Source of the DNA: Halobellus captivus
GTDB lineage: Archaea; Halobacteriota; Halobacteria; Halobacteriales; Haloferacaceae
Assembly (NCBI RefSeq): GCF_003697845.1
Contig: NZ_RDQE01000001.1
Span: 1-64,000 of the forward strand
Length of the DNA: 64,000 nt
Direction: 5' to 3'
Shown here: positions 20,161-52,071 of the stretch, piece by piece
Layout: each line of letters starts with the position of its first letter
Position numbering within the stretch: the first letter of the stretch is position 1
Made by a program: the position numbers and the translations under genes
The notes under the pieces: model-generated
Told to the model about the DNA's origin: nothing
What the model saw: the letters and a program-made list of their open reading frames with translations, nothing else
Databases searched by the model: none

Positions 20161-20213
20161 CTTATCCAGCACCACGCCGTATCCACACAGCAAGGAAAGC
20201 TGGAGGTACAAGC

Positions 20214-25041: not shown

Positions 25042-25197
25042 TTAGCCCATCCGGAGTTCGACGTAGTCTGTGAGTTTGGACTCATTCAGGGCTTCTTTTT
25101 CTTCGTCTGTGAGATCGGTGTAGTGGAAGGGGTCGTCGCCTAAAAGCTGGTTGATGAGGAAAGAGTATCTGTGTAACCGGTGATCACGTTGGAAGCA
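25042..25197 (-). pseudogene. C-terminal gene fragment, start missing
   Basis: A 51-codon open frame that ends at TAA 25042 and reads like coding sequence (SFLINQLLGDDPFHYTDLTD, EEKEALNESKLTDYVELRMG), but it is bounded upstream by a TAA and has no ATG, GTG, TTG or CTG. It is most likely the tail of a gene cut off when the PglZ operon arrived. Family unknown. Confidence 0.35.
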
Positions 25198-25229
25198 TTA
25201 AGTGGTGCGGTTGAGAACGTACCGTTTAG

Positions 25230-27995
25230 ATGAAGGAAGCTCTGGAACAGTCTCTTGAGGATTCGTTCGATTTCACCGCGTTCCAACGTCTTACTGGGAC
25301 GCAGGATGCGATCACGGACGAGACGGGGAAGATTCTCTACGTGCCGACTGACCTCCCGGTCCCGTTCGATAAACGGGTACTCAGTGCCATCGTGGACAGT
25401 GACGATGTCCGTGTCCTGTCGATGCCGGTCGATGAATGGGAGTTCCAGGAGACGATCTACACCGGTATCGAGTACCTCGTGGACAACGACGGGGACGGGA
25501 CTGTCGTGTTCTTCTGCCCTCGATCCCTCGTTGACAGCATTCAGGATATCCCCGGTACAGCGTTCGTCCATTTTGACCGCGTCCAGCTGGATGACACGAC
25601 CAGGACCATCCGTGATGCCTTCGAACGTGGGGCCGGCACCGAACCACGGCCGAGCACCATCGATGACCTTGCCGAGTTCACGTTGCGGGCTTTCACCGCG
25701 GCAGCAACGGGTGCTGAACTCAGTCCGACACACATCCAGACCAGTACTGATGACCGATTGGACGAGTTCTACATTCCCTATGATACCCTTCCGTCGGTCC
25801 CGACAGCTGTCCGTGAGTTCTTCCTCGACAGCGTCGGAATTCCCAATACTGAGTTGTTCGACAGCCTCGACCCAGCGGCCCAACAGAACGTCTACACGAC
25901 CCGGCTCCTGGCCAGGTATGGCGACAGATTCGCCCAAAACGAACCCAAATACCATGTAGCAGCCGAAATCCAAGGGCTCGACCCAGAGCTTCAGCACCTG
26001 TACCGAACCCTTGTCATCAAATGGCTGGCCCAGCGACGGCTGTTCGATTCCACCCTGACCGAACTTGCCACAACAGCGTTGGACCGGGACGTCATCGATA
26101 CCATCCAAGCAAGCTACCAACAGATCACCGGCCAGGACACGGCAGTCAACATCCAAGAACCGGGCCACGCCGCAGAAACCCTGACCCAGCACTTCGGCAT
26201 CCTGTTCCACACCGTCGACGAAGACGAGTTCACCAACCTCGTCAACACGGTACGGGACCAACTGTCGAGTGACAGCCAGCAAATCGAGGACTACGGACCG
26301 GACCAGGCCCTCAACACTGTCGAGAAAGTCGATACCCTGCTCAACCTCCTCGCTGAGGTCGCACTTATCAAACACCCCCGTTTCGTCAACGCAGCGTTCC
26401 CAAAAGACCGCTGGACGGACATCTTCGAACAGTTCATCCATGTCGCCTATGAGAACGATCGGGAGGATCTGCTCGACTACCGTTACCTGACAGCACTGAA
26501 CCAGGCACGCAAGCAGGAACTCCGTGAACGCGAAGCCGAAGACCTTGCAGAGGACATCCGCACACTGGAGGTGGACTTAGACACGCTGCCCGACTTCCTC
26601 GACCAGTGGACCTCGTTCCTCGCAGACACGCGGGAGGACGAACCGGTCTCGGATCTCCTGCAACAAGAGCTGATCGACAAGTACGACAGCTACTGTGCTG
26701 AACTCGTTGACCGGTACGACGACATCGTCACCGACGACAACTGGCTACACCTCTCCGATCTGCTCACGGAACCAGATGATGACAGGGTCAAATTCACCGT
26801 CATCCTCGACAGCGTCGGATACACCGACTACCTGCTCCTCAACCAGTTCGGCTTCCTGACCACAGAACCTGATAGCGTCGACCTCGCGTTCTCCAACATG
26901 CCGTCGTACACGCCTTCCGCTATCTCGACCATCCTCACCGGACTTCCTGCCGAAGCCACCGGTATCTACAGCTGGCAACCCCGCCGCGGTGACGACATAT
27001 TCGTTCTCCAGCACAGCAGCTACGATCCCGACGCCTTCGACTTCATCGAGGAACGTACCGAGAACGATTTCCACCTCATCCAGCGCCCGCAGCTCAATTC
27101 CTCTGGAATTTCCCGGTTCGCTGACCAGGTCGCCGATATCCGATTCTCCTCTGACCTCACTATCGAAGCCGATCACTTGGACGCGGTCCGGAACGGGTTC
27201 GTGGACGAAGTCGAGAGCACGTTGAACGAACGGCACCACGTCCTGAACAACGACGATGTAGACCCAGAAGCACGGGCAGCACAACGGTCCCACATCGTTC
27301 TCTACCTGGAGGACTTCGACAAGATCCTCCACGAGATGCTCTCGTTCGCAGAGTTCGAGAACTACTACAACACGCTCGGCAACTTCCTCGATGCCCTCCT
27401 GGAAGACCTGCGAGAAGCTACAACGATCATTGAGAACCCGGTTGACATCGAGGTCATCTCAGACCACGGGAAACTCACCCGCTACGAGATGGAAATGATT
27501 CTCAACGAACGCCCTGAACATGAATTCACCCAACAGATGCTGACAGAGACCGTCGCGCTCCAGCACGCCTACCGCATCAATTTCCGCGACGCCGAGTTCA
27601 CGAACCGAACCGACCTCCAATTCGTTACCGTGGCCACCGACGACAGCGACCCACCAGTAGACCGAATCCGTGCACTTCTCACCGAGGAGGATGCTGACGG
27701 CGTCAGTGACGATACACTCAGGGACGTGACTGAGAAAGTTGAGTATCTCCAGTCAGGCTCCAAATTCGTCTACGGCTGGCGTACAGACAGCGATGCCACT
27801 TCGATCAGTGGCCTCCATCAATTCGACGGCGTTGATACCCACCAGCCACGCGGTGACGGTATCTTCGACCTGCCTGATGTCGGACTACTCTCCCGGTACG
27901 ATATCAAAAACAGGAGTGGCCACGACCACGGCTACCACGGCGGGACCTCGATCAGCGAGATGGCCGCCCTCCGCCTTACATATCAAGACGCCTGA
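25230..27995 (+). CDS. PglZ-domain protein
   Basis: A 921-residue protein. The N-terminal half is helical and acidic with no recognised domain. The C-terminal half is a PglZ (alkaline-phosphatase-like) domain: metal-site motif VILDSVGYTDYLLL at about 526, SNMPSYTPSAISTILTGLP at about 555 (nucleophile region), EVISDHGKLTR at about 740 and DHGYHGGTSISEMA at about 897. PglZ proteins are constant members of BREX and Pgl phage defence systems. It is the first gene of a five-gene operon (25230-34170), with only 9 bases before the next gene. The exact catalytic competence needs structural alignment. Confidence 0.85.
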   Translation: MKEALEQSLEDSFDFTAFQRLTGTQDAITDETGKILYVPTDLPVPFDKRVLSAIVDSDDVRVLSMPVDEWEFQETIYTGIEYLVDNDGDGTVVFFCPRSLVDSIQDIPGTAFVHFDRVQLDDTTRTIRDAFERGAGTEPRPSTIDDLAEFTLRAFTAAATGAELSPTHIQTSTDDRLDEFYIPYDTLPSVPTAVREFFLDSVGIPNTELFDSLDPAAQQNVYTTRLLARYGDRFAQNEPKYHVAAEIQGLDPELQHLYRTLVIKWLAQRRLFDSTLTELATTALDRDVIDTIQASYQQITGQDTAVNIQEPGHAAETLTQHFGILFHTVDEDEFTNLVNTVRDQLSSDSQQIEDYGPDQALNTVEKVDTLLNLLAEVALIKHPRFVNAAFPKDRWTDIFEQFIHVAYENDREDLLDYRYLTALNQARKQELREREAEDLAEDIRTLEVDLDTLPDFLDQWTSFLADTREDEPVSDLLQQELIDKYDSYCAELVDRYDDIVTDDNWLHLSDLLTEPDDDRVKFTVILDSVGYTDYLLLNQFGFLTTEPDSVDLAFSNMPSYTPSAISTILTGLPAEATGIYSWQPRRGDDIFVLQHSSYDPDAFDFIEERTENDFHLIQRPQLNSSGISRFADQVADIRFSSDLTIEADHLDAVRNGFVDEVESTLNERHHVLNNDDVDPEARAAQRSHIVLYLEDFDKILHEMLSFAEFENYYNTLGNFLDALLEDLREATTIIENPVDIEVISDHGKLTRYEMEMILNERPEHEFTQQMLTETVALQHAYRINFRDAEFTNRTDLQFVTVATDDSDPPVDRIRALLTEEDADGVSDDTLRDVTEKVEYLQSGSKFVYGWRTDSDATSISGLHQFDGVDTHQPRGDGIFDLPDVGLLSRYDIKNRSGHDHGYHGGTSISEMAALRLTYQDA

Positions 27996-28004
27996 CTACC
28001 AGCT

Positions 28005-28763
28005 ATGCCAAAGACTATCCCCCGGATCGGCCGGCAAGACCTGCTCAAGGGTATCGAAAAGCTCGCCCAGATCGTCCACTTCCGCGGCGAGCTCACCGAA
28101 GACGAACTCCGCGACGAAATGAAGGCGATCAACCGCGACAGAGATTCCAAACTGTTCAAATCGATCGATGGCTGGCTCACGTTCACCCTGCAAGACGAGA
28201 ACCGGTCCATTGAGATCCTCAAACAGGACAACGACCACATCGAACTCACCGACGAAGGGTTAGAACTTCTGAACGCCCCTGACTTCCGTGTGGCCGCATT
28301 CCACCTGTTAGAACGTAAATCACGGACCAATTTCACCTACTTCCACACACTCCTCCAGGAACTTGACCGGAAGGTCCAGGCCGGCAACTACGACATGGGG
28401 ACCGATCTCGCTGACACCGTCAACACATTGATGAAAGACACTGTCAGCGGGAACAAGGTGACTGCTGGAGCAATAGCGTGTTTCCTCCGTGACTTCGAGA
28501 TCGCGGTCGAAAACGACGGTGAATGGCAACTTGACCCCGCCCAGTACACCTACTTCAGAGGCGAGGATGAAGACATCGTCGAGGACATCATCGCGGAACA
28601 CGGCAACCGCATGGACCGTGCAGAGTTGGAACGATTGCTCACATTGGATTTCAAGTGGACCGGGGAACAAGTCGATACTATCATACAACAATTACAGGAC
28701 CAGAATCGGGTGGCAACGGACCGCTACGAAGGCAAAACCGTGGTTGAACTGGTCACGACCTAA
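28005..28763 (+). CDS. Winged-helix-like component of the PglZ operon
   Basis: A 252-residue protein, acidic and mainly helical. Its N-terminal part (LLKGIEKLAQIVHFRGELTEDELRDEMKAI) and C-terminal part (RAELERLLTLDFKWTGEQVDTIIQQLQDQNRV) resemble paired winged-helix modules. It lies between pglZ and a small gene, where BREX systems have their small brxA/brxB-type proteins, but no direct match to these was made. Probably a DNA-binding or adaptor subunit. Confidence 0.6.
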   Translation: MPKTIPRIGRQDLLKGIEKLAQIVHFRGELTEDELRDEMKAINRDRDSKLFKSIDGWLTFTLQDENRSIEILKQDNDHIELTDEGLELLNAPDFRVAAFHLLERKSRTNFTYFHTLLQELDRKVQAGNYDMGTDLADTVNTLMKDTVSGNKVTAGAIACFLRDFEIAVENDGEWQLDPAQYTYFRGEDEDIVEDIIAEHGNRMDRAELERLLTLDFKWTGEQVDTIIQQLQDQNRVATDRYEGKTVVELVTT

Positions 28764-28766
28764 CAT

Positions 28767-29087
28767 ATGAGCATCGTCCGCAACGCCTTAGACCACTTGG
28801 ACCGGGCCGGCAACGATATCGCTATCGTCGGGATCGACGATGTTCACACCGAGTACGACACCGTCTTCGAATTCACCACGGAGGTTCAAAGACGCACCCC
28901 GAACACGGACTACGACATCGAGTTTCTCCGTCCACGCGACCGTGATGAGGGCAGTGGCGATAAGATCATTCTGATGTCGAATCCTGCCCGTATCACGGAG
29001 CACAACGTGTTAGATACAAGGATTTACATCGTCGAGCAGACAAACGACCTGAAACGCAAACTCATCAAATACCGGATCAATACATGA
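28767..29087 (+). CDS. Small protein of the PglZ operon
   Basis: A 106-residue protein, alpha/beta in pattern (NDIAIVGIDDVHTEYD, KIILMSNPARITEH, TRIYIVEQTNDLKRK). It starts three bases after the preceding gene and overlaps the large ATPase gene by ATGA, so it is expected to be made in step with it. No family recognised. Confidence 0.6.
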   Translation: MSIVRNALDHLDRAGNDIAIVGIDDVHTEYDTVFEFTTEVQRRTPNTDYDIEFLRPRDRDEGSGDKIILMSNPARITEHNVLDTRIYIVEQTNDLKRKLIKYRINT

Positions 29088-32000
29088 CAGTGGAGGAAGC
29101 CAAAGAGGACGTCGTCAACATCCTCGACCGACAGACGATCAAACGCGTCCGACGCGAGTGCGAACGACTGGCCCGAGAAAAGGACCTCCCCGAGTTCGAA
29201 GCATTCCTCGAGGAAGGCACCCACTTCATCCTCACCGACAAACGGGCCGATATCCTGCACGGCGTCCACGACGGGTTAGCCAGCCAGGACAGTCCCGGTG
29301 TCATCCTCCACGGAGCCTACGGCTCCGGGAAGACCGTGATGATGGAAAACATCGAACTTCTCTGTGACTCAAGTCAGGAGTTCGGGGGCCACGAGTTCAA
29401 CCAGCTCCAGTACGGGGAGACACCCATCGACTGCATCACGATCAGCCTCGAACAGAACGATACTCCGACCGATTTCCTCTTTGCTATCTTTCAATCCTTG
29501 GTCGACCACAGTGACAGCGTCGGCACGGACGACCTTATCGCCATCTTCAACGACCGGAAGATCAACCTGACAATCGAAGACCTCGACGACACACTGCCCT
29601 CCAGCCAGCGCGAGGACCTCATCGACCGGTTCGAGGATCCAGCCTCCTTAGAGGATATCGCCCGCGTCAGTAAATCCCTGACCGCCGGCGACGCCCACAA
29701 ACCCATCACCTGGTTCACCACGTACTACCGGGAACGAGAAGACCGGTACCCCGCCCTGTACATCGACGAGTTCGAGCAACTCTTCCGCCAAGGCGTGGAT
29801 CCGGGCGGCACCTACCGCCTCAAGGCCATCATCCAGAAAATGATCCGGAATGCCGTCTCCGGCTTTGACGATCTCGATGCCCCGCCTTACATCCTGTTTG
29901 CGAACACGCTCTCCCTCGACGAGCTCACGGACCGGTTCAGTGCAGAACGGGACCTGATCGACCGCATTACTGAAAGCGTCAGCTACAACATCGATCTCTC
30001 AGAGGACGAGACAAAGGAACTGTTCGCCAAACTCTACCGCCTCTACGTTATTCCGCTTCTCGCTGACCGCGACGGCGATGTCCAAGCGTGGTACGACACT
30101 ATCGTGTCTGCGGACCGTGGTGATGATGGCTACGTCTACCCCTTCACTGAGGACACGCTCGATTTCGCCCTAAGCATCGTCCAGAAGTTCGAAGACGAAA
30201 CACAGGGTGAAACCGTCGTCCGTGCTTTCCGTGACTACAAACGTATCCTGATTGCGTTCCTCGACCACTGGGATGGTGAGGGCCGTATCGACCTGGACTT
30301 CCTGTACCAACACGGCGACGCTGTCCGCGAACAGCTCCGGGGTCAGGTCGAACGAGTCAATCTCGATGAACTCCCTGGTGAAGGCAGCATCGAAGCCACC
30401 ATCGAGGCAGACTACGATACCGCCACAACGATCGACCGCCGTATCCTCCGCCAAGTCGCCAAGGTCGGTATCCTTGAGAAAGAGGAACGACCGGTCTACT
30501 TCACTGCTGAAGAAATCGCCGACATCGCAGGCACCATCGAACTTCAGATCAGTGAGGACGAAGCTGAGGACCTGATCAGTCGTGCTGCCAACGGACCCGA
30601 CTATTTCGACGAGGAAGAGGGCCGGCTCGAATTCGATCCGAACGAACTGACCGGGACAGCAGTTGGTGGCGGCGAACTCTCCCTTGCTGACCAGGTGGGC
30701 GAGGCCATCGAAGATCTCGACTTGGAGGACAAGAACCTGGTACAGCTCTGGGCAGCGATGCGGGAGCACCGCTTCCCCGACACCTCCTTCGAGAACCAGC
30801 AGAACCAGTTCCTCGTCTTCGATACGGAAGGCGACCTCAACTACACGTCCAATGTCTACTTCACTGTCGCCCCGGATGAGCTGCCGGAACAGCTCCAGGC
30901 CGAGGTCGATGATGAGGCACTGAACATCGTCATCCGGTTCGGGCGGGCGACCGACGGTGACCTCCCGGCACGGTTCTACGTCACGGAACGGAACGGCCGG
31001 GCAGCCGACATCACGGACGCGATAGAGACAAGTCTCAATCAGGAACTGGAAACTCATTTCGACGAGGACAGCGGCTACTATGACCTTATCGAAGCCATCC
31101 AGGAGAACAACCCTCGGTTCGATGATGCGTATGAAGCCTACGTGATGTTTCTGAAGCTCTCCCTTGCATCGCTGGCAGGGGAGGACCTCCCTGAGGATGT
31201 TGGTGTGCGGACCGCTGACCAGACCAGCTTCTCGATCATCCAGACAGTCGACAGGAGCGTCACAAACATCGCCGGGGGCTATCCCCGGACCAAACTCGGG
31301 TTCAACGAAGCCTACACCGGCAAGAACTATCTCAACCTCGTCTACGGGATCAAACACTTAGATCTTGAAGACGACCTCATCTTTGCCAACCCCAACCACC
31401 CTCGGATCGATGTCCGGTCGTTCGGCCGTGTCAGTCGGTCACGGGAGGCCGGTGACGAGTTCCGCGATATCGTCAGTTCGTTCGCGGAGCATGAATCGTT
31501 CATCCAGGAACGGGACACTGGTGAGTACGACATCGTTCCCCAGTTTAGTAGTTACAGCTCTGTGCTGGACACGATCGAATCTCACCTTGATGACGACGGG
31601 CTTGACTTCGATGAGATACTTGAGCTGATCTTCGGGACCACCGAGGTCGAAAACGTTACCAAGGCGATGGTCTACCTGCTTTTGATCCTTGGCCAGTACT
31701 GGGACGATTACAGCTGGGTCTTCGAGGACGACAGTGAGACGACCATCATTCCCGCTGATGTCCGGATCGAAACACAGCGTGACCAGACGCGGCGTAAGAT
31801 CGGGCGGGCCATCGAGATTGAAATCCTGGACCAGGCGAAACAGGACACGCCTGACAGCGATCCGGTGGAAGCGCTCAAGGACAAGTACGACAGTGTGGAG
31901 GATGCCGATGCGACGGAGCTGGATGAGCTCCAAGGTGAGGTCGATGCTGACTGGGACTTCGACTTCCAGACCGTGGATGAGTCACTCCGTGAGATCGTTG

Positions 32001-32932
32001 CGAACGATGTGTTTGCTGATACGGAGGTGGCGACGTATGCGAACACGGTCCGACCGCTCGGATCGATCGATCCCGAGCTCCGCTACCTGATCCTTGACGA
32101 CCTGGACCACGTCGTCACTCAGGTGAAAAAAGCAGCGACAGTGCTGGAAAAACAAGAGGATCTAGAACACCTCACCACGAAGCTGGACTGGTTCGGTATC
32201 GATCCCGATCTCCAGTCTGAGGACCTGGACATCGAGTGCATCACCACGATCGAGGAGTTCTGGGAGACCCACCAGGTTGAACGGAACATCGAGGATGCAG
32301 CAGTTGGTGATGACCTTGACGGGTATCTCGACGGTGATATCCAGCTCTCTCGGTTGTTCGAGATGCTCCAAAGCAGGCGAAAAAGCATCGTCCCCCAGGT
32401 CGAGACCTACGACGCTGAAGACGACAAAGACGCCTTGGATGATGACTTGGAGTACGTCAAAGGCGAGCTGACCGACGCCATCGAGGAGGAACAGGAGACG
32501 GTGTCGGCAGCACAAGACGAGTTAGCAGAGTACCGTGACCGGATCCCCGGTGAGTCCAGCTGGCTGCGGCGCGGCCAAACCTATCTGGACAACTGCGAGA
32601 CCGAGTTGGAGAGTTCGCCTGCCCAGTTCGACCACGACCAGTACGGGGACTACTGGGAGCAGTGGGAAACAGCCCGCACCAACCTGGAAGAAGAGGCATT
32701 CGGTGAAGACGAGTTCGAAGAAACCGTCCGGAAATACGATCCTGATATCGAGATAGACGTGGTCGAAGACGCTACCGAGGACGGCCTCTCGGACAGGTTC
32801 ACCGAACTGGATGACGATGAGTTCCAGCAGGTAATCGACGGATTACGCGGATCGACAACGGCTGCCGAGGAACTAAAGCAGTCCCTGCTGAAGATACGTG
32901 TGAAAGCTGAACTCACTGGTGACGAATCATGA
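29084..32932 (+). CDS. Large AAA ATPase, BrxC/PglY-like
   Basis: A 1282-residue protein. Walker A GAYGSGKTVMMENIELL is at about residue 77 and Walker B PALYIDEFEQLF at about 224, followed by NTLSLDELTDRF and a helical AAA lid. The remaining 900 residues are acidic and mostly helical. This size and layout fits the BrxC/PglY class of large defence ATPases (often DUF499/DUF6079-related). It overlaps both neighbours (ATGA type), so it is built with the HerA-like ATPase. It would be the motor or sensor of the system. Confidence 0.75.
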   Translation: MTVEEAKEDVVNILDRQTIKRVRRECERLAREKDLPEFEAFLEEGTHFILTDKRADILHGVHDGLASQDSPGVILHGAYGSGKTVMMENIELLCDSSQEFGGHEFNQLQYGETPIDCITISLEQNDTPTDFLFAIFQSLVDHSDSVGTDDLIAIFNDRKINLTIEDLDDTLPSSQREDLIDRFEDPASLEDIARVSKSLTAGDAHKPITWFTTYYREREDRYPALYIDEFEQLFRQGVDPGGTYRLKAIIQKMIRNAVSGFDDLDAPPYILFANTLSLDELTDRFSAERDLIDRITESVSYNIDLSEDETKELFAKLYRLYVIPLLADRDGDVQAWYDTIVSADRGDDGYVYPFTEDTLDFALSIVQKFEDETQGETVVRAFRDYKRILIAFLDHWDGEGRIDLDFLYQHGDAVREQLRGQVERVNLDELPGEGSIEATIEADYDTATTIDRRILRQVAKVGILEKEERPVYFTAEEIADIAGTIELQISEDEAEDLISRAANGPDYFDEEEGRLEFDPNELTGTAVGGGELSLADQVGEAIEDLDLEDKNLVQLWAAMREHRFPDTSFENQQNQFLVFDTEGDLNYTSNVYFTVAPDELPEQLQAEVDDEALNIVIRFGRATDGDLPARFYVTERNGRAADITDAIETSLNQELETHFDEDSGYYDLIEAIQENNPRFDDAYEAYVMFLKLSLASLAGEDLPEDVGVRTADQTSFSIIQTVDRSVTNIAGGYPRTKLGFNEAYTGKNYLNLVYGIKHLDLEDDLIFANPNHPRIDVRSFGRVSRSREAGDEFRDIVSSFAEHESFIQERDTGEYDIVPQFSSYSSVLDTIESHLDDDGLDFDEILELIFGTTEVENVTKAMVYLLLILGQYWDDYSWVFEDDSETTIIPADVRIETQRDQTRRKIGRAIEIEILDQAKQDTPDSDPVEALKDKYDSVEDADATELDELQGEVDADWDFDFQTVDESLREIVANDVFADTEVATYANTVRPLGSIDPELRYLILDDLDHVVTQVKKAATVLEKQEDLEHLTTKLDWFGIDPDLQSEDLDIECITTIEEFWETHQVERNIEDAAVGDDLDGYLDGDIQLSRLFEMLQSRRKSIVPQVETYDAEDDKDALDDDLEYVKGELTDAIEEEQETVSAAQDELAEYRDRIPGESSWLRRGQTYLDNCETELESSPAQFDHDQYGDYWEQWETARTNLEEEAFGEDEFEETVRKYDPDIEIDVVEDATEDGLSDRFTELDDDEFQQVIDGLRGSTTAAEELKQSLLKIRVKAELTGDES

Positions 32933-34170
32933 TTATTGGCGGGGACAAAGAAGAGTTATCAGCCTATCTTGGCCGCAAGTTCGACAGTACCGATGAGCTC
33001 GGTGAACAGGTCCGCCTCGACCTCAACGAACCCCATATGGTCACCGTCTGTGGGAAACGCGGCTCCGGGAAGTCCCATACCCTCGGTGTGATGATGGAGG
33101 AACTGATGACCCTGCCCGCCCAGGCTCGACAGAACCTGAACGGCTTGGTCATCGACGCTATGGGCATCTACTGGAGTCTCCAGGTCCAAACACCAGACAC
33201 CGACCTGCTTGATGGCTGGGATATCTCTCCCAGAGAGTACCCGGTCAAAGTCTACTACCCCGCCGGCCTCGAAGAGCAGTACGAAGAGATCCAGCAGTAC
33301 TTCCACGAAGGATTCGAGCTGTACCCCTCGGAACTCTCTGTTGAGGACTGGCTTTACCTGCTCGACATCGATGAAACCCAGGCACAGGCCGGGTTGCTCT
33401 CACAGGTCATCGAACAGGCAGAGGAGGACTTCGGCCAGTACTACAGCATCATGGATCTCCTCGATAAGGTCGAAGCCTCTCCTGAGTCCGCTAACATCAA
33501 AGACGCCCTTCACCGCCGCTTGGAGAAGGCTAAAAACTGGGGTATCTTCAGCTCCTCCGGCTCGAAGATCGAAGAAATCGTCGAGGGCGGGGAATTCGTC
33601 GTCCTCGACCTCTCCGGTGCCGGTGCCCTCCCCTGGAACGTCCGCACCATGCTTACCGGCATCCTCGTCAAGAAGATGTACAACAAGCGGAGCTTCGACC
33701 GCAGCCGGGAAGAAGTCAAGAAAATCAAAGGCGAACACACCGAAGTCAACTTCCCCCTGGTCTGGCTGTTCCTCGATGAAGCCCACCTGTTCGCCCCGTC
33801 TGGTCACACCGAACCGAGCACCGCACCCTTGGTCGAATGGGTCCGCCAAGGTCGCCGCCCCGGCCTCTCGCTCGTCATGGCCACCCAACAACCTGGAGCC
33901 CTCGACAACCGGATCCTGTCCCAATGTGACACCCTCATCATTCACCGCCTCACCGCTGGCCAGGACTCCGACGCGGTCGGGGACAAGATTTCTGAACTCC
34001 ACGATGCCCAGACCATCAGCCACTACATGCAACAGATCCCGAAAGCTCCGGGCTATGCCTATGCGATGAACGACGATGCCGAAACCATCGTCCCCGTCAA
34101 GGTCCGCCCCCGCAAGTCGTGGCACGCCGGCGACTCTGCCAAACTCGAAGAATTCCTGGAGAGCCCGTAA
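32929..34170 (+). CDS. HerA-like (DUF87) ATPase of the PglZ operon
   Basis: A 413-residue protein. Walker A CGKRGSGKSHTLGVMMEEL is at about residue 41, Walker B LVWLFLDEAHLFAP at about 280, followed by WVRQGRRPGLSLVMATQQPGAL and LSQCDTLIIHRLTAGQD, all typical of HerA/FtsK-related hexameric DNA translocases. In archaea HerA works with NurA, but no NurA is present here; the PglZ-operon context suggests a defence translocase instead. It is the last gene of the operon. Confidence 0.85.
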   Translation: MIIGGDKEELSAYLGRKFDSTDELGEQVRLDLNEPHMVTVCGKRGSGKSHTLGVMMEELMTLPAQARQNLNGLVIDAMGIYWSLQVQTPDTDLLDGWDISPREYPVKVYYPAGLEEQYEEIQQYFHEGFELYPSELSVEDWLYLLDIDETQAQAGLLSQVIEQAEEDFGQYYSIMDLLDKVEASPESANIKDALHRRLEKAKNWGIFSSSGSKIEEIVEGGEFVVLDLSGAGALPWNVRTMLTGILVKKMYNKRSFDRSREEVKKIKGEHTEVNFPLVWLFLDEAHLFAPSGHTEPSTAPLVEWVRQGRRPGLSLVMATQQPGALDNRILSQCDTLIIHRLTAGQDSDAVGDKISELHDAQTISHYMQQIPKAPGYAYAMNDDAETIVPVKVRPRKSWHAGDSAKLEEFLESP

Positions 34171-34231
34171 CGATCTGATCCTCACGCAACGAGGAGGTCT
34201 TTTTTAATAATCGCTTCTTGGTGTGACCTAT

Positions 34232-36342: not shown

Positions 36343-37704
36343 TTACTCTGGTGGCGAATCGGTGCGGCGTTCCTCGACGAACTGGCGTAGATCCATACCG
36401 TTCAGCTTGCGGCTTTCCGATCCTCGCCGCTGATAGAACCGGCCGTTCTCGCTGTACGGGATCTCATCAGCCTTCTCGATTTCAGCGATGAGCACATGCC
36501 CGCCGTCGATTTCCTCTATCTGTGTGAACCGGATCGGGGATCGCGGATCGACCCCGTCTTCGATGATGTTCAACAACCGTTCTTCAACCCGTTGTGGATC
36601 CTTCCCTGTGCCTGTATTCTCGATCCCTACTACTGTGCCACTATCTGCAACACCGACGAGGAGATACCCGCCTTCGGCATTCGCTAAGGCAACGACCGCC
36701 TTACGGATCTTCTGTTTATCCGAGATCGTCTTTTTGCCTTCAACCGTCGGGGACTCGTACTGGTCAATCAAATCCCTGATCTCATCGACGGGGAGGTCTT
36801 CCTTGGTCACACTGGATGTTGGCACGATATCTTTCGCCAAGTAGTGTGCACCGACCAGGTCGGTCGCAACAGCCTGTCGATCGGAGATGTCACCAATCTC
36901 GCGTTGGTCGAACGAGACCATTGTCCCATCGTCGTGGGGCTCTGCGTCCAAGACCTGGTTCCGGATGTTCGTCGTTGCACCAACCTGGGTAAGCGTGTTC
37001 GTCCCTTTCTGCCAGATACGGAACACCCCCTCCGCATCCGGGTACGGATCTTCAAAATCACCCAGGTCGTATGTTTCCCAGTCGAACCCCATCCACGTCT
37101 CCGAGGTCACATCATCCCACTGTTCCCACGTTGAGATCGTCTCCTCTCGCATGCCGGGCTCGCCGTCGTCCTGTTCGAGTTTCCCACCGCGTCTCCCGGA
37201 ACTGCGGGGACCTGACTGCTCATAGCCAGGGATCATGTACCCGAAATTGGCGGTCGGTGATTGACGGGAGACGAACCGGTACCCCGCGATGTAGGCGGCC
37301 TTGAGCCCGACTAAGTCATTGACTGTGGCCAGCTCGCCGATAGTCCGGGTCGAGGTCAAACTCGACTGTTCCTCATCATCGCCAATATCGTCGATCGATG
37401 CCCAACACACCCGGTACTCGGCACTGTATTCGTCCGCAATCGCCCACAGACACGGCGCTGCCGTATGCGGATCCCGGTGCGGCATCTCGTCTGAATCAAT
37501 CTCATTCCCCATGCGCCATATTCGGTCATGAAGATCGGTCCGGCTGTGCCCGACGTACTGGACCCCGCTCAACGATTTATGCGACACCAGGTAGATGCCC
37601 GGTTCCTGTGGAATGACGCCAAGCTCCCTGGTGGGGAAAAGCGGTGTCCACTCCGACCAGTTGATGACCGGATGGACGATCGGAACTGTCCCGGAAGCTG
37701 CCAT
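36343..37704 (-). CDS. GIY-YIG nuclease-Schlafen AlbA-2 fusion
   Basis: A 453-residue protein. Residues about 34-75 read PGIYLVSHKSLSGVQYVGHSR...LHDRIW, a GIY-YIG nuclease core with the GIY and YVG elements. A second, weaker copy near 230-255 (GVFRIWQKGTNTLTQVGATTNI) lacks the canonical residues. The C-terminal 170 residues match the Schlafen AlbA_2 domain: ISDKQKIRKAVVALANAEGGYLLVGVAD, then GRFYQRRGSESRKL. This joins a nuclease and a putative nucleotide/RNA-binding domain, fitting a defence role. It is followed 66 bases upstream by the GHKL-protease gene on the same strand. Confidence 0.75.
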   Translation of the reverse strand: MAASGTVPIVHPVINWSEWTPLFPTRELGVIPQEPGIYLVSHKSLSGVQYVGHSRTDLHDRIWRMGNEIDSDEMPHRDPHTAAPCLWAIADEYSAEYRVCWASIDDIGDDEEQSSLTSTRTIGELATVNDLVGLKAAYIAGYRFVSRQSPTANFGYMIPGYEQSGPRSSGRRGGKLEQDDGEPGMREETISTWEQWDDVTSETWMGFDWETYDLGDFEDPYPDAEGVFRIWQKGTNTLTQVGATTNIRNQVLDAEPHDDGTMVSFDQREIGDISDRQAVATDLVGAHYLAKDIVPTSSVTKEDLPVDEIRDLIDQYESPTVEGKKTISDKQKIRKAVVALANAEGGYLLVGVADSGTVVGIENTGTGKDPQRVEERLLNIIEDGVDPRSPIRFTQIEEIDGGHVLIAEIEKADEIPYSENGRFYQRRGSESRKLNGMDLRQFVEERRTDSPPE

Positions 37705-41711: not shown

Positions 41712-44700
41712 CTATCGTTGGTAGCCTGAGTACAGGCGGATGGGTTCGTCGAGGTGGCTGGGGTCGAGGAACTCGTCTGCTGTGTCGGCACTGATGAGGT
41801 CCTCGAGGTCGTAGGTGTCGAAGGCGTCGTCGTGGTTGCCCATAGCTTGGTAGAAGGTGATCCAGGCTTTCTGCTCCTCGAACGTCTCGACGTCGTCGCT
41901 AGATTCTTCGAACAGGCCGGCGGAGGCGATGATGACGACCTTCTGCTTCATGCGGCTGGCACCGACGTTGAACCGGTTGGGTTCAAGCAAGAACTCGCTG
42001 ATCTGGCTGATGTAGCCGCGGTCGGAGGCGGTCATCGAGAGGATCATCAAGTCTCGTTCCCCGCCTTGGAACCGTTCTACGGTATCGACAGCGGCATCCG
42101 GTGAGACGAACCCGATCACGTCACGTCGCTGTGCGCGGAACGGGACCACGACACCTGCCGTCACTTCCTCATCGTCCGCGTCCTCGTCGTCCGGGGCACA
42201 GATATCGACCGCGTTCAACACTTCGGCGATCAGTGCCTGTTCGACGGCATTGGTTTTCTGGGACTGGTTCTCGTTGTGGACCAGCAATGTCACCCGGTCG
42301 TCGGTGTTCAGGATGTCCGCGGCTGGGCCATCGACGTCGGGGATTTCGTCGCTGTCACTTGCACTGACGAGGTCGATGTCGTCGTCCTCGTAGAACAGGT
42401 CGGTGTGCATGTCGGCCGATTCCTGTGGGAGGCGGTAGGTGACGTTGAGGCGGTGGACGGGCAGTGTTTCGTCCGGCTCGTCGGGGACTTCGACGGGCCG
42501 GTCGAAGTACTCGATCTCGGTTTCGCCGCGGAGGTACCGGATGAAGTCCAGGGCTGAGAGGAACGGGACGTGTTGTTCGATGGGTTCGCGGTCTTCCTCC
42601 TCCCAGTCGTGTTTCTGGATCGGCTGCATTTGGCGGTGGTCACCGACCAGGATGACCTGGCCGTTCGCATCGACGTAGGACCCGACAAGCAGGAACAAGG
42701 GGAGATCCATCATGCTGGCTTCATCGACGATTGCCAGGTCGAACGGCGAGGAGTCCTGGGACTGCAGGAAGAGCTCGATGTCGTCGTAGTCGAAGGCATC
42801 GACCTCACCGATCATCCGGTTGAACAGGCCGCGTAGCGAGGTCGGGGTGGAGAAGAACACGACACGGTTGCTGGTGTCGCGGTCGTCGGCGAAGTATCGG
42901 TCGTACAGGTCTTCCAGCTGGGCGGTGTTGTCGTCCGCGTTATAGTTGATCGTCTCGACCCGGGGATCGTTGATACTCTGGCCCGCACTCGACATCACCC
43001 GGATGTACGCGATCTCGTCCGCACCGGTTCCCGGCGGACAGTCGCTGTCGAGGTCGACTGTGCCTTCCAGTGCTTCGTTGACGGCGGTGTGGGAGACCGC
43101 GGAGACGACCCCGCGGAACGGTTGGCCTTGGTGGATGGCTGCGTAGGCCCGGCTCAGCAGGGAGGGGGCGACCGTGAACTTGGTTTTGCCTGTGCCTGGT
43201 GGGCCTTGGAGCATGAGGAGGCCGTTGTCCACGTCCCGCACCAGGTCGCGTTGTGCTGTGTTCGGCCGCTGCCACCCCACCGTCACCGCCATCAACTGGA
43301 TGTACTGCTGGATGACGTCTTCGTCCCAGTGGTCGATAGGGATGGCATCGCGGCGGCCGTTGTAGATCTGGCTGAGCCACCGCCGTAGCGGGGCGTCAAA
43401 GGCGTGTTGGAGGGATTCGAAGGCACGTTCCTGTGGGATCTGATCGAAGTTGGGGTCGAGGACGTACTGCTCGCCTTCCGCGACATACGTCTCCCACTCC
43501 TCGTCGATAGCGTCGTGATCGTCCGACCAGCCGCGGTGCCGCACGGTGTACTCACCCCACCACGGCCAGCCCCAGTGGAAGGTGCCCGCAATCGTGATCG
43601 TGCCGTCTCCCTCATCGATATCCGAGACAATGACGGTGGTCGAGTTCCCGATCGAGCTGGGATCGTCCGGGTCGTCTAACCGGTAGGCTTCCGGTCGGTC
43701 ACCGTGGTCGTCCAACCGGGTCAACAGCATGAAGTCATCATCGGTGACCGAGATCGATCCACCGGTCAACCCGTCATGGACGTCCGGATCGTACGCGTCC
43801 CGATTACTGAGCAACAGGTCGCCCTCGATGACGTGGTCATCTGTATCGACGTTGGTGCATTCGAAAAGGAGTGAGGATCCGGAATCGACCCGTTCCTCCA
43901 ACGGTTGCCGGTAGTAGTCCTCCAGGTTCTTCTTCGTGGTCTGGTACTCCAACCGCTGGTATTCGATACAGACATCGTCCAGGCTACGGGGGGCGAACGA
44001 GAAGTCAGCCAGCTCGGCGAGCTCGATCGGTTCTTTCGTGACGAACTGGTCGTTCGCATACCGATTGTTGGTTTCGATCGTCCGCTCGATGTGGTGAGAT
44101 GACCGGGCGAACCGTTGTGCGAGCAGGGCCAGGTCAGTGTCCGTGATGCGGTCATCGGAGCCTGGTGTCCTGGTAAGATATGGGTCGAGGTCCTCGGGAT
44201 CATCAGCCAAGTCTGGATCAAGTCGGTCGTGCCGGCCCCAGATGTATTCGATCGGGATCTGGTCGGTTTCCCGGTACTGCACCGGGTAGATGTGGCGTCC
44301 TACCCGGCGATCATCCGGTGTCCATACTGGTTCCTGGTGACTGTGGTCAAGGTTTGGGCCGGGATAGTAGCGGACGGTTCCGTCGAACAACCCTGCTTCG
44401 AAGATCCGAGGCAGCTGGACGAACCCGTCATCACTGATTTCCTCGATGTCCTCCTCATCCAGGAGGTCCTCGTCGTCGAGGGCGGTGACCGGTGCGCGCC
44501 AGTCGTAGAAGTCACCGTTCCACAGGAAGTGGCCGACGCTTTGGACCGAGCCGAGGCCGGGGAACCGGAGTGCCCACCGCCGACGGAAATCTTCCTGCAT
44601 CAGGGACACCATTTCTTGGTCGATGCTGGGGCGGAGGCCCAGCAAGGTGCGGATCGGGCGTTGCCACTCCGCCGTTGGGTGGCGGCGGATCGCGTCCATC

Positions 44701-46208
44701 AACGCGTCCCGTTGGGTATCGCTGTAGAGGTAGAGATGGAGGAAGCCGTGGTCATCGTCCAGGTCGATATCGATGTGGGGTTGGTTCGACCAGTCAGGAG
44801 AGACGCGATCAACCTCGTCAGCTAACTGTTCGAAGAACTGGGAGAACAACCGGTTTTCCTCTGCCTGTTTCGCACCGGTTTCGATGGGAAGGTCATCAGG
44901 TAGCTCTGTCACCGTCCCACTGCGGCCGGACAGGGAACACTCGATGTAGGCACTGAGCAGGGTGACCCGGTCCTGGGCGAAGTCCTGCTGGACATAGAGA
45001 TAGACCCGGACCAAGGATTCGGACGGATAGTCCGGCCCACCCCAGGCATCCCAATCCACGTCAAGTTCACCGTGGGCATCCTGGGGCAAGGCGTTCCCCG
45101 TACCGCGAAGCGGGTGGGCAAAATAGTCCGGCCCGTCACGGCCGTAATCATCGTCGATTTCGGCGAGAAACCGGTACGCGATCTGTGCCCGTTTCTGCAG
45201 GTTCGTGATATCGGCTTCCTGCCGGACCTGCTGTGTCAACTCTTCATCACGCGGTGTCAACCCGGCGTAGTCCCAGTGGACACTGCCTTCCGGATCATGC
45301 TCGAACAGGTTCGCAAAGTCCTCGATATCGGTGACCCCGAGCTCGTGGAGTGCCTGTTGTGTTCCAGCCTGCAGTCCCAACAGTTCGAGGCCCTTGTTCT
45401 CCGCACCCAGCGTAACGCAAAACGGTTCGTACTCACAGCCTGAACAGCGGCGAGCGATACGATTCGTCGTCCGCTCGAAATCCGTATCGAGGATGGTCTG
45501 GTCGAACGACCCGCCCTCTCCCAGTTTGAGTGCTAACTTTGCCTGGTACGGTTCTGTGTCGAAGCCCTCGGGAACATCGCCACTGAGATCGTTCTCCGGT
45601 GTGATGATCGTGACCGGGATCGAGTCCGGGACAGCAGCATCCTCGACGGCGTCGAGGTACTGTTCCAGGAGGATGGCGTAGATGGCGGCCTGGTACCGGT
45701 GATGGACCTTCTGCTCGCTGGAGGACTTGATCTCGTACAGTGTCGGAACAAGTCCGTCGTCGGTTGGTTCAAGTAACAGTGCATCTGCCTTCCCAGCGAC
45801 CGGATAGGCCCCGATCTGGCCGGCGAGATGGGGCTGGTGGATGACCGTCGTGCCGAGCTCCGAGTTCGCCACGTCAGCGATGACCCCTTGGACCTCGTCC
45901 CGGCCTGTGTCGCTGTCGTCCTCCCAGGTCCGGGTAAACTCGATAGCTGTGTCACTGGTATCCGTGTCGTCGAGACCGAAGAGAGCGTCCGCCTCGTCGA
46001 CGAGCTGTTCTAACTGGGCAAATTCGAAGTTGTCACCTTCCCCTGTCAGGACAGGGCTGACCGAGGCCGAGGACCAGTCACGCGCGTCGATCCGGTCCTG
46101 TGCGTCATCATCGTACTCCCACTGCAGATACATCGGACAGCTCTGAAGACGGAAGAACTGGCCAATCGCACTCGGGCTGAGGATAGGCCGATCGCCACGT
46201 GCTCCCAT
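41712..46208 (-). CDS. Cas4/RecB-like nuclease-SF1 helicase fusion (Dna2-like)
   Basis: About 1498 residues from ATG 46208 (the open frame further upstream only mirrors the opposite strand). The N-terminal domain is a Cas4/RecB-type nuclease: Cys near residue 24 (QSCPMYLQW), KADALLLE, LYEIKSSSEQKVHHRYQAAIYAI near 140-170, and CSGCEYEPFC near 249, giving four cysteines for an Fe-S cluster. The C-terminal helicase is SF1 of the Upf1/Dna2 type: Walker A LQGPPGTGKTKF at about 1001, FDLAIVDEASMMDLPL at about 1157, DHRQMQPI, VERFQGGERDLMIL. It would unwind and degrade DNA ends. It stands alone on the minus strand and may be a defence or recombination helicase. Confidence 0.85.
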   Translation of the reverse strand: MGARGDRPILSPSAIGQFFRLQSCPMYLQWEYDDDAQDRIDARDWSSASVSPVLTGEGDNFEFAQLEQLVDEADALFGLDDTDTSDTAIEFTRTWEDDSDTGRDEVQGVIADVANSELGTTVIHQPHLAGQIGAYPVAGKADALLLEPTDDGLVPTLYEIKSSSEQKVHHRYQAAIYAILLEQYLDAVEDAAVPDSIPVTIITPENDLSGDVPEGFDTEPYQAKLALKLGEGGSFDQTILDTDFERTTNRIARRCSGCEYEPFCVTLGAENKGLELLGLQAGTQQALHELGVTDIEDFANLFEHDPEGSVHWDYAGLTPRDEELTQQVRQEADITNLQKRAQIAYRFLAEIDDDYGRDGPDYFAHPLRGTGNALPQDAHGELDVDWDAWGGPDYPSESLVRVYLYVQQDFAQDRVTLLSAYIECSLSGRSGTVTELPDDLPIETGAKQAEENRLFSQFFEQLADEVDRVSPDWSNQPHIDIDLDDDHGFLHLYLYSDTQRDALMDAIRRHPTAEWQRPIRTLLGLRPSIDQEMVSLMQEDFRRRWALRFPGLGSVQSVGHFLWNGDFYDWRAPVTALDDEDLLDEEDIEEISDDGFVQLPRIFEAGLFDGTVRYYPGPNLDHSHQEPVWTPDDRRVGRHIYPVQYRETDQIPIEYIWGRHDRLDPDLADDPEDLDPYLTRTPGSDDRITDTDLALLAQRFARSSHHIERTIETNNRYANDQFVTKEPIELAELADFSFAPRSLDDVCIEYQRLEYQTTKKNLEDYYRQPLEERVDSGSSLLFECTNVDTDDHVIEGDLLLSNRDAYDPDVHDGLTGGSISVTDDDFMLLTRLDDHGDRPEAYRLDDPDDPSSIGNSTTVIVSDIDEGDGTITIAGTFHWGWPWWGEYTVRHRGWSDDHDAIDEEWETYVAEGEQYVLDPNFDQIPQERAFESLQHAFDAPLRRWLSQIYNGRRDAIPIDHWDEDVIQQYIQLMAVTVGWQRPNTAQRDLVRDVDNGLLMLQGPPGTGKTKFTVAPSLLSRAYAAIHQGQPFRGVVSAVSHTAVNEALEGTVDLDSDCPPGTGADEIAYIRVMSSAGQSINDPRVETINYNADDNTAQLEDLYDRYFADDRDTSNRVVFFSTPTSLRGLFNRMIGEVDAFDYDDIELFLQSQDSSPFDLAIVDEASMMDLPLFLLVGSYVDANGQVILVGDHRQMQPIQKHDWEEEDREPIEQHVPFLSALDFIRYLRGETEIEYFDRPVEVPDEPDETLPVHRLNVTYRLPQESADMHTDLFYEDDDIDLVSASDSDEIPDVDGPAADILNTDDRVTLLVHNENQSQKTNAVEQALIAEVLNAVDICAPDDEDADDEEVTAGVVVPFRAQRRDVIGFVSPDAAVDTVERFQGGERDLMILSMTASDRGYISQISEFLLEPNRFNVGASRMKQKVVIIASAGLFEESSDDVETFEEQKAWITFYQAMGNHDDAFDTYDLEDLISADTADEFLDPSHLDEPIRLYSGYQR

Positions 46209-46338
46209 ACCCCTAGGACCGAAACAACCCACCTCCTTAACAGTAAGCGTACTATCGGCCTCGCAGTTGACACACCCGGCATCGAGGAAAGACGCCCTGG
46301 ACCAGGTCTTTCTTGATACAGTCCTTTGAACAGGAGAG

Positions 46339-47313
46339 ATGTATGCCGAGACGGATGATCGTCGTCCGTCCACTATCCGTCTCTTCGGGGTGGAACACGA
46401 CGAATACTCTGTGTCGAAGACGAAGGAGGAATTGGAGTCATTCATTTCGGAGGACACTGAGGCTATCTTTTTCGAGGCACCGAACGACGAGGATGTCGAT
46501 GAAGGTGAAGGTATCCCCGAGCCCGGCTATCATATGACATCGTTCGTTTGGCGACCGTTCCTCCGCAATCCAAGCTTTGTCATCTATCTCCTCCTCGTTG
46601 GACTGATCCCTAACCTGCTCAAGGAGCTCTATCAGGAGCGAACCTTTGCCTCACTGAATCCGTGGACGTGGAAGGTTGGTCGGCGTATTGTCTCTGAGTG
46701 GAACGCCGCAATCGATCTCGCCGACCAACGGGGTATTCCGCTCATCAAGGTCGATAAGCCGATGCCCGCGGTCATCCGTGATCAAGAACATCACTGGACA
46801 CCGCTCAGTGTGATCTTCCTCGTTGGCCTTCTCCTGGTGCTCGGCTATATCGCCTGGATCGCAGCGATTGGCTCAGTATTCGTCATGTGGGTTTATTTAG
46901 CGTTCTTCCTCGCCTTCCTGGCTATTGCCCGCTTCAAGGGCTATACCGTTAATTGGCGTCAGGTAGCTGTCGCTGTGGGCGTGTATTTTCTCCTAATCTT
47001 GCTTGCCAGTTACTTCGTGGTCGAGGGACCGACGCTGGGTGCCTCCATCATCGCTGAACTCGCAACCATCACCGTCCTGTACGTGCTGGCTATCATGACC
47101 CTCCGGGTCTGCATCTATCTCCCCTTCATCAAGGCCACCAACGACGAACGCAACACCTACATGATGCAGCAAATCATCGAAACAGCACAGGACGAGGACT
47201 ACACCGATGTCTGCGTCATCGTCGGAGCCAGCCACCTCGACCACTTCGAGGACCTCTGTGACATCCGCGATGTCACCTGCCCAGAACCAGTCGACATGCG
47301 AACCTGGGACTAA
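46339..47313 (+). CDS. TraB/TIKI-like protein with a membrane insertion
   Basis: A 324-residue protein. The N-terminal half has RLFGVEHDEYS and EAIFFEAPND, and the C-terminus has NTYMMQQIIETAQDEDYTDVCVIVGASHLDHFEDL. These are the conserved blocks of the TraB/TIKI (erythromycin esterase-like) metalloprotease superfamily. Between them sit about three to five transmembrane segments (residues about 150-260). It is divergent from the large nuclease-helicase. A role in peptide or pheromone turnover at the membrane is known for relatives, but not shown here. Confidence 0.65.
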   Translation: MYAETDDRRPSTIRLFGVEHDEYSVSKTKEELESFISEDTEAIFFEAPNDEDVDEGEGIPEPGYHMTSFVWRPFLRNPSFVIYLLLVGLIPNLLKELYQERTFASLNPWTWKVGRRIVSEWNAAIDLADQRGIPLIKVDKPMPAVIRDQEHHWTPLSVIFLVGLLLVLGYIAWIAAIGSVFVMWVYLAFFLAFLAIARFKGYTVNWRQVAVAVGVYFLLILLASYFVVEGPTLGASIIAELATITVLYVLAIMTLRVCIYLPFIKATNDERNTYMMQQIIETAQDEDYTDVCVIVGASHLDHFEDLCDIRDVTCPEPVDMRTWD

Positions 47314-51905: not shown

Positions 51906-52071
51906 CTCGTCGACGGGCGATTTCGTCCTCTATCCGCTGGGCTTCTGCCCGCATATCCTGGGCACCGTAGATGTGGCCCCGGTCCAGGTCTTTCAGGGCC
52001 AGTCCGTAGATCTCCTGGCGTTTCTCTTTCAGTTCCTGCAGTGTCATTGCGGTGTAGGGGTTCGACATCAT
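51886..52071 (-). CDS. Small helical hypothetical protein
   Basis: A 61-residue protein, helical and charged (MTLQELKEKRQEIYGLALKD, AQDMRAEAQRIEDEIARR), probably a coiled coil. It overlaps the following gene by 20 bases and starts four bases inside the previous one. Unknown. Confidence 0.5.
   Translation of the reverse strand: MMSNPYTAMTLQELKEKRQEIYGLALKDLDRGHIYGAQDMRAEAQRIEDEIARRRGERSEQ

What the first reader, a model, noticed from the sequence alone, without database searches (positions are those of the whole stretch)
25230..34170. PglZ / AAA / HerA operon without a methyltransferase
Five genes with overlaps or gaps of 2-9 bases encode PglZ (921 aa), a winged-helix-like protein (252), a small protein (106), a BrxC-like ATPase (1282) and a HerA-like translocase (413). 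BREX needs a PglX methyltransferase; none is present here, and no DndCDEA, SspABCD or brxL genes are seen. It might be an unusual BREX relative, an effector module that relies on host modification, or a new defence system.
Basis: partly seen in the sequence, partly recalled or inferred. Interest (0 to 1): 0.82.

Follow-up and report, generated by a model that had tools for sequence, protein, structure and literature searches.

The report
Archaeal PglZ–HerA restriction cassette
A five-gene salt-loving-archaeon operon that looks like a BREX antiviral system without its DNA-marking enzyme turns out always to share its genome with a separate gene set for swapping guanine for a 7-deazaguanine base, so it is probably the DNA-attacking half of a guanine-replacement defence system.

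Summary
In detail: five co-directional genes (PglZ-like 921 aa, triple winged-helix 252 aa, 106 aa, P-loop ATPase 1282 aa, HerA-type translocase 413 aa), no methyltransferase in or near. The order is conserved in five other haloarchaeal genomes. All six genomes also carry a separate module: two extra tRNA-guanine-transglycosylase paralogues, a DpdC-like DUF6884 protein and a GHKL ATPase, often with queD-queE-queC. It lies beside the operon in four (queDEC between them in one), 12 kb away in one, and on another contig in the window's genome. In a 391-genome survey all 5 operon genomes carry it, against 42 overall (hypergeometric p about 1e-5). In other haloarchaea the module stands beside different restriction cassettes, including DpdJ/DpdK-like genes. 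Best reading: the operon is the restriction arm of a system whose self-mark is a 7-deazaguanine base in DNA, supplied in trans. The nearest published relative is the BREX-Related Capture (BRC) system (NAR, January 2026), but the ATPase, the PglZ, the absence of an in-operon TGT/GNAT and the DpdC-bearing module differ. New variant of a known kind. The DNA mark and the defence activity are inferred, not shown.

The parts
25184..25229 (+). conserved upstream stretch, presumed promoter/leader of the operon
   Evidence: left edge of the 77%-identical block shared with H. halobius L010; nothing else in the window is shared with that locus
25230..27995 (+). PglZ-like protein, 921 aa; C-terminal alkaline-phosphatase-superfamily domain; presumed nuclease/effector
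   Evidence: PF01663 E 4.5e-8 over 556-748; conserved DS-x-G, SDHG and H-x2-HGGTS-x2-E motifs in six homologues; weak alignment of the C-terminal HGGxS..E stretch with the BREX PglZ of the same genome
28005..28763 (+). 252-aa protein of three winged-helix units, BrxA/SspB-like; presumed DNA binding
   Evidence: AlphaFold2 model pLDDT 83; VIA-align: SspB 6juf Z 9.7 over 222 residues, BrxA 7zge Z 9.2 over 172 residues; no Foldseek hit below 1e-3
28767..29087 (+). 106-aa conserved protein of unknown role
   Evidence: conserved in position in all six loci, 32-84% identity in the five aligned; no family match
29084..32932 (+). 1282-aa P-loop ATPase (GAYGSGKT at residues 77-84), BrxC-sized
   Evidence: weak AAA_22 match; similarity to DUF6079 and BrxC limited to the P-loop region; conserved in 5 of 391 haloarchaeal genomes plus H. 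halobius
32929..34170 (+). 413-aa HerA-type translocase, the most conserved subunit (72-99% between all loci)
   Evidence: PF01935 E 1.6e-13; PADLOC mad8 E 8e-22 over 13-401; alignment A7
34179..34195 (+). terminator-like hairpin with T-run just after the HerA gene
   Evidence: consensus scan only, count not clearly above shuffles
41712..46457 (-). possible accessory: 1581-aa SF1 helicase, probably with an N-terminal PD-(D/E)XK nuclease; family recurs near the TGT module in other haloarchaea
   Evidence: helicase domains, Cas4-like N-terminal hit, PD-(D/E)XK in homologue L107; homologues in L055, L054, L107, L115

Best explanation
The operon is the restriction arm of a restriction-modification-like antiviral system whose self-mark is a 7-deazaguanine base in DNA. 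A separate module makes the mark. QueD-QueE-QueC supply preQ0. A pair of TGT paralogues exchanges guanine for preQ0 in DNA, perhaps helped by the GHKL ATPase in the place of DpdB. The DUF6884 (DpdC-like) protein and/or the ArcS-like C-terminal domain of the larger TGT then convert it to an amide- or archaeosine-type base. The five-gene operon assembles on DNA through the triple winged-helix protein and the large ATPase, HerA pumps DNA that lacks the mark, and the PglZ-like protein cuts or nicks it. Shown here: gene content, conserved order, genomic co-occurrence, adjacency in relatives, conserved catalytic motifs. Inferred: that the TGTs act on DNA, the identity of the base, that the operon restricts unmarked DNA, and that the module on contig C10 serves the operon on C1 of this genome.
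For: All six genomes with the operon carry the TGT pair, DUF6884 and GHKL genes besides canonical ArcTGT and ArcS. In 391 haloarchaeal genomes: operon 5, TGT-S 42, overlap 5/5, p 1.1e-5; by genus 5/5 against 25/86, p 1.5e-3. Operon and module are adjacent in four of six loci: genes end 9 bp apart in G295, about 300-450 bp in G147 and G070, and in H. halobius only queD-queE-queC and two small ORFs lie between. In G056 a 127-residue GHKL remnant lies next to HerA while an intact, different module sits 12 kb away. Elsewhere the module neighbours other restriction-type genes in most loci: DpdJ-like helicase, DpdK-like PLD (E 1.5e-11), GmrSD, PbeA-like, DruE/BrxHI-like helicase. DUF6884 is the domain given for dpdC in bacterial dpd islands (PMC11888242) and hits PADLOC DpdC weakly. 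Both TGTs keep the two Asp motifs and Cys zinc ligands of ArcTGT. In genomes G043 and G019 the BRC-type operon has its own TGT gene and the module is absent.
Against: In the window's own genome the two halves are on different contigs (C1 and C10), so linkage is by analogy. Only 5 of 42 module-bearing genomes have this operon. No measurement of DNA modification exists. TGTs ordinarily modify tRNA. The co-occurrence test ignores phylogeny (the genus-level value is weaker). The PglZ and ATPase assignments are remote.
Confidence: 0.68

Rival explanations
1. The operon is a stand-alone HerA-based capture system that recognises invading DNA by structure or process (segregation, packaging, conjugation) and needs no self-mark; its company with the TGT module reflects defence-island clustering.
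For: Operon and module are on different contigs here; BRC was proposed as an offshoot of HerA capture systems with TGT in only a subset. The operon lies in a low-GC island with conjugation-type ATPase genes.
Against: 5 of 5 (6 of 6 with H. halobius) co-occurrence across several genera, adjacency in four, and module replacement in G056.
Confidence: 0.17
2. The operon is a BREX derivative that uses methylation made by another system in the same cell, such as the Eco57I-type methylase of the BREX on contig C35.
For: The genome carries a complete BREX with methylase, BrxB, BrxC and PglZ.
Against: BrxC, BrxB and PglZ of that BREX are not close relatives of the operon proteins; the operon's conserved partner across genera is the TGT module.
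Confidence: 0.08
3. The TGT/DUF6884/GHKL module modifies RNA, and its association with restriction-like genes serves an RNA-based or abortive defence.
For: TGT enzymes normally act on tRNA; the genome's sole full-length QueC is in this module, so it also feeds tRNA archaeosine.
Against: Canonical ArcTGT and ArcS are already present; the module neighbours DNA restriction families, including DpdJ/DpdK-like genes; a haloarchaeal host DpdA homologue was already proposed to modify halovirus HVTV-1 DNA (PMC6884629).
Confidence: 0.07

Closest known systems
BREX-Related Capture (BRC) systems, Rakesh and Krishnan 2026 (PMC12839542)
   Same: PglZ-type protein, large AAA+ ATPase, tripartite winged-helix protein, HerA/FtsK translocase, and TGT as proposed source of a 7-deazaguanine self-mark; the closest other HerA genes seen in haloarchaea lie in BRC-type operons.
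   Different: ATPase does not match DUF6079 beyond the P-loop; PglZ is 921 aa against 369 aa in haloarchaeal BRC-type loci; no second small P-loop protein, no GNAT or TGT in the operon; modification is a separate module with two TGTs, a DpdC-like protein and a GHKL ATPase, whereas BRC was reported to lack DpdB and DpdC.
Dpd (dpdA-K) 7-deazaguanine DNA modification islands of bacteria
   Same: TGT-type base exchange, DUF6884 (DpdC), preQ0 synthesis genes, separate restriction operon; DpdJ/DpdK-like genes beside the same module in other haloarchaea.
   Different: No DpdB (a GHKL ATPase gene stands in its place); two TGTs, one with an ArcS-like domain; restriction arm here is PglZ/ATPase/HerA, not dpdD-K.
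BREX (types 1, 5, 6)
   Same: PglZ-type effector, BrxC-sized ATPase, BrxA-like winged-helix protein.
   Different: No PglX, no BrxL, HerA added; sequence similarity to BrxC and PglZ is marginal.
MADS (mad1-mad8)
   Same: HerA subunit matches mad8 along its length (E 8e-22).
   Different: None of the other four proteins matches any mad model.

Membership tests
BREX | PglX/BrxX methyltransferase in the locus | tested here: not met
   no methyltransferase among the five proteins and no N6/N4 motif ORF in window or next 19 kb
BREX | PglZ (PF08665) and BrxC profiles | tested here: not met
   PF08665 not matched by the 921-aa protein, which matches PF01663; BrxC domain profiles not matched; only short remote alignments
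BRC (BREX-Related Capture) | HerA/FtsK translocase in the operon | tested here: met
   DUF87/HerA, E 1.6e-13; related to HerA of haloarchaeal BRC-type loci L187, L188
BRC (BREX-Related Capture) | DUF6079 (BrxC-type) ATPase | tested here: not met
   no PF19557 hit at the window locus; hhalign to a DUF6079 alignment covers the P-loop only, probability 68%
BRC (BREX-Related Capture) | STAND-NTPase component | tested here: not met
   no further P-loop NTPase apart from the ATPase and HerA; the 106-aa protein has no ATPase match
BRC (BREX-Related Capture) | tripartite DNA-binding protein (DUF4007/BrxA-like) | tested here: inconclusive
   three winged-helix units in the model; SspB and BrxA among VIA-align rows with Z near 9.5, not above other winged helices; no DUF4007 Pfam hit
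BRC (BREX-Related Capture) | TGT and/or GNAT in the operon (in a subset of loci) | tested here: not met
   absent from the operon; TGTs encoded in a separate module on contig C10
Dpd | DpdA-type TGT beyond canonical TGT | tested here: met
   two extra PF01702 proteins in the genome with catalytic and zinc motifs kept; PADLOC calls the small one TGT, not DpdA
Dpd | DpdB ATPase | tested here: not met
   the four module proteins gave no DpdB hit in PADLOC; a GHKL ATPase sits there
Dpd | DpdC | tested here: met
   DUF6884 E 9.2e-13, PADLOC DpdC E 9e-4; DUF6884 named for dpdC in PMC11888242
Dpd | dpdD-K restriction genes | tested here: not met
   no Dpd profile among the five operon proteins; a haloarchaeal DpdJ-like protein finds only weak helicase-domain matches in the own genome
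MADS | mad1-mad8 set with methyltransferases | tested here: not met
   only mad8 matched
Dnd/Pbe and Ssp | DndCDE or SspABCD phosphorothioation genes and effectors | tested here: not met
   no such PADLOC hit among the five operon proteins; the rest of the genome was not scanned for them
7-deazaguanine-marked restriction | 7-deazaguanine base present in cellular DNA | not testable with these tools
   needs mass spectrometry or nanopore data

The most novel reading that the evidence does not exclude
Haloarchaea use one conserved 7-deazaguanine DNA-marking module (two TGTs, DUF6884, GHKL ATPase) as a common self-mark with several unrelated, interchangeable restriction cassettes, of which this PglZ/ATPase/HerA operon is one, able to work in trans from another replicon. 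Because the larger TGT carries an ArcS-type domain with the PCxxxKPYxxSxxH motif, the mark in cellular DNA could be archaeosine-type (dG+ or a lysine adduct) and not only dPreQ0 or dADG.
Probability: 0.3. Interest if true: 0.8.

Novelty: new variant of a known kind. Interest (0 to 1): 0.62.

Why it matters
It gives a concrete answer to how a BREX-like operon can do without a methyltransferase, extends Dpd-type base exchange from bacteria and viruses to archaeal hosts as a likely hub for several restriction cassettes, and makes the prediction directly testable in a named strain, Halorussus halobius HD8-83, where marking genes and restriction operon lie on one contig.

Tried and rejected
PADLOC, Pfam and NCBIfam for the five proteins: only the HerA subunit gives strong hits. 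PDB sequence searches for PglZ, ATPase and the 252-aa protein: nothing meaningful. The AlphaFold model of PglZ had mean pLDDT 64 and its Foldseek hits were not usable. DUF6079 loci sampled elsewhere in the phylum had methylases or helicases and no HerA of this type next to the ATPase; used only for profile comparison. Lack of a PUA domain was considered as evidence for DNA substrates but dropped, because the canonical haloarchaeal ArcTGT ORF also shows none in Pfam. No relative of the ATPase on plasmids, of the small TGT among phages, or of HerA among viral contigs; only TGTs of 20-25% identity in viral contigs. Close HerA homologues found in most genomes of one family of the phylum (f13) lie in an unrelated conserved neighbourhood and were not counted. 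The supplementary taxon list of the BRC paper could not be read, so it is not known whether any of these loci is among its 45 taxa.
Full report
WHAT IS THERE. They are separated by 9 and 3 bases and then overlap by 4 and 4 bases, as in one transcription unit. The same five genes in the same order occur in Halorussus halobius HD8-83 (L010) and in four other haloarchaeal genomes (L011-L014). Identity to H. halobius is 71, 77, 84, 80 and 95% along the operon; to the others it is about 29-40% except for HerA, 74-76%. DNA similarity to H. halobius begins 46 bases before the first gene and stops at the end of the last; nothing else of the window is shared with that locus. The operon therefore moves as a cassette. 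It lies in a low-GC stretch (about 52-58% up to roughly position 52000, against 69-70% from 56000) that also holds conjugation-type ATPases, so probably in a mobile or defence island.

WHAT THE PROTEINS ARE. The 921-aa protein matches the alkaline-phosphatase superfamily (PF01663) and keeps conserved motifs of the PglZ kind, including SDHG and HGGTS, but not the Pfam PglZ profile. The 252-aa protein is modelled as three successive winged-helix units; SspB and BrxA are among its structural neighbours over most of its length, at Z near 9.5, though single winged helices score as high. The 106-aa protein has no known relative. The 1282-aa protein has a clear P-loop; beyond it I could not align it with BrxC or DUF6079. 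The last protein is a short HerA-type translocase, resembling mad8 of MADS along its length. There is no methyltransferase in the operon, and none was seen by motif in the rest of the window or the next 19 kb.

WHERE THE MODIFICATION GENES ARE. In two relatives the neighbours of the operon are tRNA-guanine transglycosylase (TGT) genes. A search for TGT then showed that every operon-bearing genome has, besides the canonical archaeosine enzymes, two further TGT paralogues. They form a conserved module: a large TGT of about 640-680 aa with an ArcS-type C-terminal domain, a DUF6884 protein of about 150 aa, a small TGT of about 415 aa and a GHKL ATPase of about 520 aa, with divergent queD-queE-queC in three of the six. 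In H. halobius module and operon are on one contig with queD-queE-queC and two small ORFs between them. In G295 the GHKL and HerA genes end 9 bases apart; in G147 and G070 the distance is about 300-450 bases. In G056 a GHKL remnant 80-90% identical to that of G295 lies beside HerA, and an intact module of a different lineage lies 12 kb away, as if the original module had been lost and replaced. In the window's genome the module is on contig C10, near an integrase, so the operon would have to be served in trans.

IS THE ASSOCIATION MORE THAN CHANCE. In 391 haloarchaeal genomes the large ATPase occurs in 5 and the small TGT in 42; all five carry both (hypergeometric p 1.1e-5; by genus 5 of 5 against 25 of 86, p 1.5e-3). 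The test ignores phylogeny, but the five genomes belong to five genera in four families. Sequence distances of operon and module are discordant: G295 and G056 share operons at 94-99% but modules at about 50%, while H. halobius and G295 share the small TGT at 94% but ATPases at 37%. The two halves are exchanged independently, which fits a common mark.

WHAT ELSE USES THE MODULE. I read 20-kb neighbourhoods of 35 further loci. Most have one or more restriction-type families close by: a DpdJ-like helicase with a DpdK-like phospholipase-D protein, a DruE/BrxHI-like helicase in a five-gene set, GmrSD proteins, PbeA-like helicases, or an SF1 helicase with PD-(D/E)XK nuclease whose homologue also lies in this window at 41712-46457. 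My tally of 37 of 41 loci with such a gene (or the PglZ operon) within the fetched stretch has no matched background control. An annotated example is Haladaptatus sp. YSMS36 plasmid NZ_CP119784, with DEAD helicases, a PLD protein, DUF6884, TGT and an ATP-binding protein together. DpdJ and DpdK belong to the bacterial Dpd system, and DUF6884 is the domain reported for dpdC (PMC11888242). This is the main reason to read the TGTs as DNA-modifying. That paper reports dpd islands in eight bacterial phyla; a DpdA homologue in the haloarchaeal host of virus HVTV-1 was noted earlier (PMC6884629).

MECHANISM. Most likely the module places a 7-deazaguanine base in host DNA and the operon attacks DNA that lacks it. 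Steps supported by sequence: preQ0 synthesis (QueD, QueE, QueC), base exchange (both Asp motifs and Cys zinc ligands of ArcTGT kept), ATP-driven translocation (HerA) and a metal-dependent phosphatase-fold effector. In type I BREX, PglZ was reported to be a metal-dependent nuclease (PMC12205998, title and abstract only). Steps inferred: the substrate is DNA; DUF6884 and/or the ArcS-type domain finish the base. The motif PCxxxKPYxxS is present in 32 large-TGT ORF records (a few of them the same gene in overlapping loci) and in the genome's own ArcS, and ArcS can transfer lysine to preQ0 nucleosides without tRNA (PMC11298593). That this motif marks ArcS is from my own knowledge of the ArcS literature.

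RELATION TO KNOWN SYSTEMS. The published BRC system combines PglZ, DUF6079, a STAND NTPase, DUF4007, HerA, GNAT and TGT (PMC12839542). I found what appear to be BRC operons in two haloarchaea (L187, L188): TGT of 334-346 aa, a 274-288 aa protein, a small P-loop protein, a 1317-1325 aa protein, a 369-aa PglZ, HerA and GNAT. These two genomes lack the small-TGT module. The window operon has the same plan and a related HerA, but fails the DUF6079, NTPase and in-operon TGT/GNAT features, and its partner module has a DpdC-like protein that BRC was said to lack. It works like BRC; I do not file it as BRC. It fails BREX for want of PglX, MADS for all but mad8, and Dpd for DpdB and dpdD-K.

LIMITS. 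Gene calls in loci without annotation are mine. G-handles carry no organism names. The own genome is in 37 contigs, so the distance between C1 and C10 is unknown. The BRC supplement was not readable, so priority cannot be fully settled.

Noticed in passing
L096-L128 (20-kb stretches of haloarchaeal genomes), e.g. L125, L114, L102: The TGT/DUF6884/GHKL module is paired with at least four other restriction cassettes (DpdJ-like plus DpdK-like; DEAD/MZB five-gene set; GmrSD; PbeA-like), suggesting a hub-like archaeal Dpd system.
   Followed up: partly
L187 and L188: Apparent BRC operons in haloarchaea with in-operon TGT and GNAT and a very short 369-aa PglZ; the small P-loop ORF (130-158 aa) may be a truncated or miscalled STAND NTPase.
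   Followed up: partly
window 41712-46457 (-): 1581-aa SF1 helicase with Cas4-like N-terminal stretch; homologues (1473-1628 aa) recur beside TGT modules in other haloarchaea.
   Followed up: partly
window 36343-37704 and 37771-39309 (-): Schlafen AlbA_2 protein next to a GHKL ATPase gene, a possible separate defence pair.
   Followed up: no
L179, L181, L182 (genomes G420, G505, G611): Close homologues of the operon's short HerA occur in most genomes of one family of the phylum (f13) in a conserved, non-defence-looking neighbourhood; a possible housekeeping ancestor of the subunit.
   Followed up: no
G000 contigs C35 and C7 (L016, L017): The genome carries a full BREX (BrxB, BrxC, Eco57I-type methylase, PglZ) on C35 and a second PglZ-bearing locus on C7.
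   Followed up: partly
window 18835-20211 (-): HNH endonuclease with homing-endonuclease-associated repeats; the same repeat type recurs beside some TGT modules (L123).
   Followed up: no
G000:C10:25653-26279: The only full-length QueC in this genome lies in the TGT module, so tRNA archaeosine synthesis may depend on a mobile element.
   Followed up: no
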